Below, piece after piece: positions 46,768 through 47,467 of a stretch of 64,000 nt of DNA. This stretch comes from Flavobacteriales bacterium (GTDB lineage Bacteria; Bacteroidota; Bacteroidia; Flavobacteriales_D; Crocinitomicaceae). Made by a program: the position numbers and the translations under genes. The notes below the pieces were generated by a model that saw only the letters and a list, made by a program, of their open reading frames with translations, was not told where the DNA came from and made no database searches. The stretch lies in NCBI GenBank assembly GCA_947447525.1, contig CANFJL010000004.1, forward strand, positions 1-64,000. The letters run 5' to 3'. Numbering within the stretch: position 1 is the first letter of the stretch; each line of letters opens with the position of its first letter.

Positions 46768-46775
46768 TAATTTTG
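46768..46775 (+). promoter_or_regulatory. -7 promoter box for tRNA-Arg
   Basis: TAATTTTG, a perfect TAnnTTTG match ending 10 bp before the first tRNA base. Confidence 0.5.
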
Positions 46776-46785
46776 TCACTCAATC

Positions 46786-46859
46786 GGCTCCGTGGCGCAA
46801 CTGTATAGCGCATCAGATTTCGGCTCTGAGGGTTGGGGGTTAGAATCCCTCCGGGGTCA
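46786..46859 (+). tRNA. tRNA-Arg, anticodon TCG, with altered 19-56 pair
   Basis: A 74-nt cloverleaf: acceptor stem GGCTCCG / CGGGGTC with two G-U pairs, D stem GCGC / GCGC, anticodon stem TCAGA / TCTGA with loop TTTCGGC (anticodon TCG, reads CGA and related Arg codons), variable loop GGGTT, T stem GGGGG / CCCTC. A20 and C35, known arginine identity bases, are present. The CCA end is not encoded. The D loop has T where G19 is normal, and the T loop is TTAGAAT with A where C56 is normal; the two changes restore a Watson-Crick tertiary pair. Confidence 0.93.
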
Positions 46860-46866
46860 CAAAAAG

Positions 46867-46893
46867 AACCCAGCACAAAAGTGCTGGGTTTTT
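46867..46893 (+). terminator. Rho-independent terminator after tRNA-Arg
   Basis: Perfect 10-bp stem AACCCAGCAC (46867-46876) / GTGCTGGGTT (46881-46890) with loop AAAA, followed by more T residues. It lies 7 bp after the tRNA. Confidence 0.92.
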
Positions 46894-46970
46894 CCTTTTA
46901 AAGCGGTTAAAGTTTATTTTGAAAAGCAATTTAAAAGGAAAAACCCAAAAACTGCAAAGCAGTTTGGGTT
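46886..46970. repeat. Inverted repeat and second hairpin next to the tRNA terminator
   Basis: GGGTTTTTCCTTTTAAA (46886-46902) recurs as its exact reverse complement at 46930-46946. The second arm continues into a further hairpin, AACCCAAA...ACTGC (from 46942) with GCAGTTTGGGTT (to 46970). The arrangement looks like an inverted copy of the tRNA terminator region. Confidence 0.85.
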
Positions 46971-46977
46971 CTATGCT

Positions 46978-47467
46978 TGGAATGCCCAATGCGCAGGGAA
47001 CATGCGCAGCATAATCCTGACAAGGTCACAAAACAGAGTTAGAGGCTAGACCTAGAGTTTGGACCTAGAGGTTAGAGCTGGAGCGAGAGCTTCATTCTCA
47101 TTATGTTTCTCGCACTCGATTATGGAATGCCCAATGCGCAGGGAACATGCGCAGCATAATCCTGACAAGGTCACAAAACAGAGTTAGAGGCTAAACCTAG
47201 AGTTTGGACATACCCTTCGATGAACTCAGGGCGAGGAGGTTAGAGCTGGAGCGAGAGCCTCATTCTCATTTTGTTTCTCGCACTCGATTATGGAATGCCC
47301 AATGCGCAGGGAACATGCGCAGTATAATCCTGACAAGGTCACAAAAACAGACTTAGAGCTAGAGGCTAGAGTTAGAGCAAAATACTCCAATTGGTTTTTC
47401 TTCGCTTTCATTATGTTTCTCACACTCCTTCCTGGAATGCCCAATGTATTTAAATTGGGTCTTTTTC
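46978..47467. repeat. Tandem hairpin-rich repeats downstream of tRNA-Arg
   Basis: Units begin with TGGAATGCCCAATG at 46978, 47123, 47291 and 47433, giving periods of 145, 168 and 142 bp; the fourth is only a fragment. Each full unit has two ATGCGCAG direct repeats, a segment CAAGGTCACAAAA resembling the 3' end of the adjacent tRNA, runs of TAGAG, and a GAGCGAGA / TCTCGCACTC hairpin. The longer second unit holds an extra segment with CCCTTCGATGAACTCAGGG. The stretch from 46860 to 47469 holds no convincing gene. Confidence 0.9.
47439..47466 (+). terminator. Possible terminator at the end of the repeat block
   Basis: GCCCAAT (47439-47445) can pair with ATTGGGT (47454-47460), followed by CTTTTT. 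It lies at the 3' edge of the repeat fragment and just past the stop of the convergent lipoprotein gene. Confidence 0.45.

What the first reader, a model, noticed from the sequence alone, without database searches (positions are those of the whole stretch)
46786..46859. tRNA-Arg(TCG) with a swapped U19-A56 tertiary pair
The sequence folds as a complete tRNA, but the near-universal G19 in the D loop is T and the near-universal C56 in the T loop is A (T loop TTAGAAT). Both positions change together so that a Watson-Crick pair is kept. This pair holds the D and T loops together at the elbow. Two independent errors would be unlikely to compensate. A functional tRNA with a rewired elbow would be an unusual case and would test how the ribosome, RNase P and modifying enzymes read this contact.
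Basis: partly seen in the sequence, partly recalled or inferred. Interest (0 to 1): 0.72.

Follow-up and report, generated by a model that had tools for sequence, protein, structure and literature searches.

The report
Arginine tRNA with swapped elbow pair
A bacterial arginine tRNA holds its elbow together with a U-A contact in place of the near-universal G-C, and relatives and phages show that this contact is swapped again and again in arginine tRNAs but kept as a matching pair, so its shape rather than its letters seems to be what the cell needs.

Summary
The window's only tRNA gene, tRNA-Arg(UCG) at 46786-46859 (Rfam 57.8 bits), has U19 (46804) and A56 (46842). It is no error: nine genomes of the genus, this one included, share the 74 bases. 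Of 24 genus genomes whose UCG gene I read, 21 have U19-A56 and 3 A19-U56; of 26 with the ACG gene read, 23 have A19-U56 and 3 U19-A56. The window genome carries U19-A56 (UCG), A19-U56 (ACG) and G19-C56 (UCU, CCU) side by side, with one ArgRS, one RNase P RNA and one TruB found.

Scans fixing only base 19 found U19-A56 in tRNA-Arg of Bacteroidota, Clostridia, SAR116 and phages, including T4-like RB32 and VR20. In 327 of 327 distinct tRNA-Args of one loop size 19-56 is Watson-Crick, in all four types. In 148 Bacteroidota genomes A19 stands beside A20 in 25, beside another base in none. Best reading: working tRNAs whose elbow pair drifts under a Watson-Crick-only rule, mostly in tRNA-Arg. U19:A56 is in print for tRNA-Pyl; ten paper searches showed no report for tRNA-Arg.

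The parts
46786..46859 (+). tRNA-Arg(UCG) gene; CCA not encoded
   Evidence: ARAGORN, Rfam RF00005 57.8 bits, identical in nine genus genomes
46804..46804 (+). U19 in the D loop (usually G)
46842..46842 (+). A56 in the T loop (usually C)
46805..46805 (+). A20, the main arginine identity base of bacterial tRNA-Arg
   Evidence: identity role from passages of PMC9976931
46820..46822 (+). anticodon TCG
46768..46775 (+). TAATTTTG, a match to the Bacteroidota -7 promoter box TAnnTTTG (consensus recalled), 10 bases before the tRNA
   Evidence: a box at -25 to -12 is present in 5 of 26 distinct upstream stretches, the window's own included, against 0.7% in shuffles
46867..46893 (+). terminator-like hairpin (10-bp stem, AAAA loop) followed by T
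   Evidence: sequence read directly

Best explanation
This is a working tRNA-Arg(UCG), the only one found in its genome, of an uncultured Crocinitomicaceae-type bacterium. Its elbow is closed by a U19-A56 Watson-Crick pair in place of G19-C56. The pair is the exposed end of the D/T-loop stack, on which RNase P, the ribosomal L1 stalk and others stack; for tRNA-Arg they appear to need a flat Watson-Crick pair, not particular bases, so the pair drifts among G-C, A-U, U-A and C-G as long as both sides end up matched. In other tRNA families some reader probably holds it at G-C (leucine identity in E. coli is a published case); in tRNA-Arg, which its synthetase recognises by the neighbouring A20, that hold is looser. 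Shown here: the pair, its conservation, the strict covariation, the restriction to A20-bearing tRNA-Arg in the sampled Bacteroidota chromosomes (for this D-arm form), and three pair types in one genome. Inferred: that the tRNA is expressed, charged and used; that its readers are indifferent to the letters; and why arginine is special.
For: Identical gene in nine genus genomes; 30 of 37 genus genomes read, all with U-A or A-U in their CGN-reading tRNA-Args and none with a single change. U19 is met by A56 in 112 of 112 genome and 18 of 18 viral tRNA genes. 327 of 327 distinct tRNA-Args are Watson-Crick at 19-56 (GC 134, AU 116, UA 61, CG 16) and 19-56 ranks third of the column pairs at least four apart in corrected mutual information, among the stem pairs. 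Pairs of genes that differ at 19 and 56 and nowhere else: L301/L147 and L357/L218. One genome with three pair types and one ArgRS, one class A RNase P RNA, one TruB found. A19 beside A20 in 25 of 148 genomes, beside another base in 0 of 148. The UCG tRNA is the only CGG reader found; 21 CGG codons in 19,175 codons of 47 window ORFs (decoding rule recalled).
Against: No expression, charging or structure data. Some elbow readers are reported to care: in T. thermophilus C56 is a determinant for thiolation at 54 (PMC7912444 passage), and G19 and C56 variants of tRNA-Leu lost TrmK methylation (PMC9801127 passages); changing U19:A56 of tRNA-Pyl to G19:C56 raised suppression, so U-A may be weaker (PMC5758916 passages). 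Arginine is not the only family: in viral contigs A19-U56 occurs in 43 of 49 non-A20 tRNA genes with A19, of eleven families, so the A20 argument is at best partial. The scans chose sequences by base 19, so the pair counts are not natural frequencies. Outside Arg, mismatched 19-56 exists (6 A-C and 3 U-C among the non-A20 genes).
Confidence: 0.8

Rival explanations
1. The swap is selected, not neutral: a changed elbow pair lets arginine tRNAs be told apart from other tRNAs, for example to escape a nuclease, to avoid a modifying enzyme, or to tune charging or decoding of rare CGN codons.
For: Concentration in tRNA-Arg: 25 of 148 against 0 of 148 Bacteroidota genomes and 14 of 78 against 53 of 1,642 pattern-free viral tRNAs lacking C56. 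Recurrence in distant bacteria and in phage tRNA-Arg(UCU). Retention of U-A or A-U across the genus.
Against: Four pair types interchange, and within one cell three coexist, which no single reader of identity would favour. T4 itself keeps G19-C56 while close kin have U19-A56. No nuclease, enzyme or phenotype was tied to it here.
Confidence: 0.15
2. A tRNA that escapes translation and donates arginine elsewhere, as known for altered-elbow tRNA-Gly of staphylococci (recalled).
For: An altered elbow and a low-usage codon family.
Against: It is the only CGG reader found, its 19-56 contact is kept as a pair rather than lost, and the same trait is in the ACG tRNA of most relatives.
Confidence: 0.03
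3. Sequencing or assembly error, or a decaying gene.
For: The genome is a draft of 22 contigs.
Against: Nine genomes share the 74 bases and intact genes covary without exception in the set. Real decayed copies look different: six tRNA-like halves have U19 with a TTC T arm.
Confidence: 0.01

Closest known systems
Canonical bacterial tRNA-Arg (class I tRNA, G19-C56 elbow pair)
   Same: Cloverleaf, 9-base D loop, A20, G18, TT at 54-55, purine 57, A58, 5-base variable loop
   Different: 19-56 is U-A instead of G-C
Methanosarcina tRNA-Pyl (PMC5758916, passages read)
   Different: tRNA-Pyl is a shrunken non-canonical scaffold; this is an ordinary tRNA-Arg with the rest of the elbow intact
Eukaryotic tRNA-Ala with unusual tertiary pairs (PMC7566577, passages read)
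   Same: One amino-acid family that departs from otherwise conserved tRNA pairs, seen in alignments
   Different: The passages concern other positions (such as 15, 54, 58 and 30-40) and speak of a conserved G19=C56
tRNA-Arg(UCU) of T4-like phages RB32, VR20, HY03, G4498, Manna
   Same: tRNA-Arg with A20 and U19-A56
   Different: Phage gene, anticodon UCU, different stems; annotated or predicted as ordinary tRNA-Arg

Membership tests
Functional bacterial tRNA-Arg | Scores as tRNA with complete stems | tested here: met
   RF00005 57.8 bits, gathering 29, full length; ARAGORN
Functional bacterial tRNA-Arg | Arginine identity bases A20 and C35, with G36 for a CGN reader | tested here: met
   A20 and anticodon TCG read directly; identity set from PMC9976931 passages
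Functional bacterial tRNA-Arg | G19-C56 | tested here: not met
   U19-A56; not a fixed trait of the family, as 193 of 327 distinct tRNA-Args in my base-19-selected set lack it
Functional bacterial tRNA-Arg | 19-56 able to pair Watson-Crick | tested here: met
   U-A here; 327 of 327 distinct tRNA-Args
Functional bacterial tRNA-Arg | Expressed, charged, used in translation | not testable with these tools
   Only indirect: promoter-like box, terminator-like hairpin, sole CGG reader found, conservation
tRNA-Pyl type elbow | Small D loop without GG, one base between acceptor and D stem, long anticodon stem (PMC7609411 passages) | tested here: not met
   9-base D loop, two connecting bases, 5-bp anticodon stem
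Non-translational tRNA with altered elbow (staphylococcal tRNA-Gly, recalled) | Loss of the D/T-loop contacts and a duplicate of a normal isoacceptor | tested here: not met
   Contact kept as U-A; no second UCG gene among 31
tRNA pseudogene | Loss of pairing or of constraint among relatives | tested here: not met

The most novel reading that the evidence does not exclude
The 'invariant' G19-C56 elbow pair of tRNA can be any Watson-Crick pair in arginine tRNAs, has switched many times in bacteria and phages, and in this cell three versions work side by side; in some lineages the switch is adaptive, because a nuclease, modifying enzyme or synthetase tells arginine tRNAs apart at the elbow.
Probability: 0.15. 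Interest if true: 0.8.

Novelty: new variant of a known kind. Interest (0 to 1): 0.58.

Why it matters
The 19-56 pair is the exposed flat face on which RNase P, the L1 stalk and T-box leaders stack (passages of PMC9433436 and PMC5309774), and it is called invariant in print (PMC6337575 passage). A natural series in which the same tRNA body carries A-U, U-A or C-G, in two cases differing at nothing else, makes it directly testable whether these readers sense base identity or only pair geometry, and why arginine tRNAs are let off. It also bears on tRNA design and on gene-finding models that weigh G19 and C56.

Tried and rejected
Error or pseudogene: rejected by nine identical genomes and by covariation. 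A second normal tRNA-Arg(UCG) as the real reader: none among 31 tRNA genes; but only 150 of 257 first-look candidates were scored, and tRNA-Ile(GAT) and tRNA-Ala(TGC) are missing from the 31, so an unassembled or unscored gene cannot be wholly excluded. Change of the T arm by an integrating element: not favoured because the D loop changes with it, though repeats follow the tRNA. Synteny: besides the window's own copies, the gene before the tRNA (a peptide-binding protein by look) stands next to it in 2 contigs (L011, L098); nine others hold a homologue further off, and most contigs tested showed none, so orthology by position is not shown. A parsimony count of pair switches on a tree of 71 tRNA columns (81 changes; shuffled labels mean 153) was made, but such a tree is weak and I do not lean on it. 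One search used a wrong index for the T loop and is replaced. Papers: ten searches; of 13 papers I saw passages only, none in full; others I saw as listings. I saw no report of U19-A56 or A19-U56 in tRNA-Arg there; most subscription journals are not held, and one relevant paper (Lehmann 2013) was not held.

Full report
What is there. The window holds one tRNA gene, tRNA-Arg with anticodon TCG, at 46786-46859. Its D loop is AACTGTATA and its T loop TTAGAAT, so base 19 is U (46804) and base 56 is A (46842); G18, A20, U54, U55, purine 57 and A58 are as usual. A promoter-like box lies 10 bases upstream and a terminator-like hairpin just downstream. A box in that range is present in 5 of 26 distinct upstream stretches, the window's own included (shuffles 0.7%), so expression is likely but not shown.

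The genome. G000 has 2.66 Mb in 22 contigs and is 99.7% complete; 31 tRNA genes were found, with 150 of 257 first-look candidates scored. Its four tRNA-Args are UCG (U19-A56), ACG (A19-U56), UCU and CCU (both G19-C56); the other 27 all have C56. No CCG gene was found. By decoding rules (recalled) inosine-34 reads CGU, CGC and CGA, so CGG needs the UCG tRNA; CGG occurs 21 times in 19,175 codons of 47 mechanically chosen ORFs of the window, in 15 of them. One ArgRS frame, one class A RNase P RNA and one TruB were found. By equal contig lengths, genus mates are deposited as Cryomorphaceae, Crocinitomicaceae or Lishizhenia metagenome bins (G001 contig 329 and JAIXRD010000111.1, both 26,833 bases; G035 contig 24 and JANQWC010000024.1, both 29,499; G030 contig 21 and CALQIX020000021.1, both 64,110), so the organism is most likely an uncultured Crocinitomicaceae; this is inference.

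Relatives. A search of 60 relatives gave a match in 39. Nine genus genomes, this one included, have the identical 74 bases. With further fetches and tRNA calling, tabulated, 30 of 37 genus genomes had at least one CGN-reading tRNA-Arg read: UCG is U-A in 21 genomes (22 genes) and A-U in 3; ACG is A-U in 23 and U-A in 3. None had one change without the other. Seven genus genomes gave no gene to read. In other families of the order the UCG gene is G19-C56 in eight genomes and A19-U56 in four (five genes), and G043 has G19-C56 in UCG beside A19-U56 in ACG.

Wider scan. Of 123 genome hits 112 lie in tRNA genes called by ARAGORN; all 112 have A56 and are tRNA-Arg (75 TCG, 36 ACG, 1 CCT). The titles shown for 80 of the 119 name Flavobacteriales, Bacteroidales, Saprospiraceae, Clostridia, Christensenella and one SAR116 alphaproteobacterium among others; some bins carry doubtful genus names. 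Of 22 viral hits 18 lie in tRNA genes, all tRNA-Arg with A56. Of the 11 genome hits without a call, six (L096, L128, L132, L169, L187, L191; three titled Clostridia, three titles not shown) are tRNA-like halves with U19 and a TTC T arm: decayed copies break the rule that intact genes keep. One is cut by a contig end and four do not look like tRNA. The pattern contains A20, so it leans towards tRNA-Arg by design; the next paragraph is the check on that.

Controls. With a base other than A at 20, A19 gave U56 in 43 of 49 genes of eleven families, none Arg, and U19 gave A56 in 4 of 7, two of them Arg. So swapped pairs are not confined to arginine in phages, and mismatches do occur outside Arg.

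Covariation. From 580 tRNA-Arg calls over the loci then held, 90 were dropped (84 other loop sizes, 5 other register, 1 odd T loop); the 490 kept, some fetched more than once, give 327 distinct sequences. All 327 are Watson-Crick at 19-56: GC 134, AU 116, UA 61, CG 16; 19-56 ranks third of the column pairs at least four apart in corrected mutual information, among the stem pairs. The scans chose by base 19, so these are not natural frequencies; base 56 was never fixed. Two pairs of genes differ at 19 and 56 and nowhere else: L301/L147 (A-U against U-A) and L357/L218 (C-G against U-A).

How common. In Bacteroidota genomes asked to be at least 90% complete, U19 beside A20 in this D-arm form occurs in 2 of 392, both of this genus; A19 beside A20 in 25 of 148, all in the window's class as the tool groups it (25 of 37 there, 0 of 111 outside); G19 beside A20 in 115 of 148; A19 beside another base in 0 of 148. 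The 29 A19 genes read from 30 loci are all tRNA-Arg with U56; the 28 G19 genes read from 30 loci are all tRNA-Arg(UCU) with C56. So A19-U56, mostly in the ACG gene, is common in the class, and U19-A56 is rare in the phylum and frequent in this genus. U19 beside a base other than A20 was not counted in chromosomes, and genomes whose D arm departs from the motif are invisible to these counts.

Phages. Of 16 named phage stretches fetched, five (T4-like VR20, RB32, HY03, G4498, Manna) have tRNA-Arg(UCU) with U19-A56; T4 itself and ten others (nine with tRNA-Arg, one tRNA-Thr) have G19-C56. Among viral tRNAs not chosen by pattern, 14 of 78 tRNA-Args and 53 of 1,642 others lack C56 (Fisher p 7e-7, but the contigs themselves were chosen for carrying such genes).

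Mechanism. The 19-56 pair ends the D/T-loop stack and offers a flat face to RNase P, the L1 stalk and T-box leaders (passages of PMC9433436, PMC5309774, PMC4810234). Watson-Crick covariation in four forms, three of them in one cell with one ArgRS and one RNase P found, says that for tRNA-Arg the pair is needed, not its letters. Why arginine: ArgRS identifies bacterial tRNA-Arg mainly by A20, next to base 19, whereas leucine identity in E. coli needs G19-C56 (PMC9976931 passages); other families may be held by such readers. That is inference. Against full indifference: C56 is a determinant of thiolation at 54 in T. thermophilus (PMC7912444 passage), G19 and C56 variants of tRNA-Leu lost TrmK methylation (PMC9801127 passages), and turning U19:A56 of tRNA-Pyl into G19:C56 raised suppression in mammalian cells (PMC5758916 passages).

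Known or new. U19:A56 is stated in print for Methanosarcina tRNA-Pyl. Ten paper searches in an open-licence library showed me no account of swapped 19-56 pairs in tRNA-Arg; most subscription journals are not held, and older suppressor-tRNA selections on the D and T loops (recalled, Steinberg group) could not be read. I call it a new variant of a known kind.

Noticed in passing
window 46923-47346: Three tandem-like copies of about 111 nt downstream of the tRNA each contain AATCCTGACAAGGTCA (47013, 47158, 47326), the exact 3' end of this genome's tRNA-Arg(ACG); one more copy lies at C3:99556 besides the tRNA itself at C3:54198. Possible attachment-site or repeat-element remnants.
   Followed up: partly
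L096, L128, L132, L169, L187, L191 (genome contigs; three titled Clostridia): A tRNA-Arg-like 5' half with U19, followed by a short TTC hairpin and a run of A, lies directly before another tRNA-Arg start; in L132 and L169 that next D arm reads TTGGATA (G19).
   Followed up: partly
viral contig loci: Phage-contig tRNAs of several families (Gly, Ala, Thr, Phe, Val and others) also carry A19-U56 and, less often, C19-G56, suggesting a looser elbow rule in phage tRNAs generally.
   Followed up: partly
L368 (viral contig), five tRNA-Args and a tRNA-Ser: One viral contig carries several tRNA-Args (TCG, GCG, CCG, CCT) with A56 or G56 T loops together.
   Followed up: no
upstream of tRNA-Arg(TCG) in L013, L018, L021, L022 and in L012, L015, L024, L033: Two recurring kinds of upstream sequence in genus mates (a hairpin-like GCAACTG...CAGTTGC stretch and a CTCCGTTTCGGCGGACAGGCAAC stretch), unlike the window's own upstream region.
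   Followed up: no
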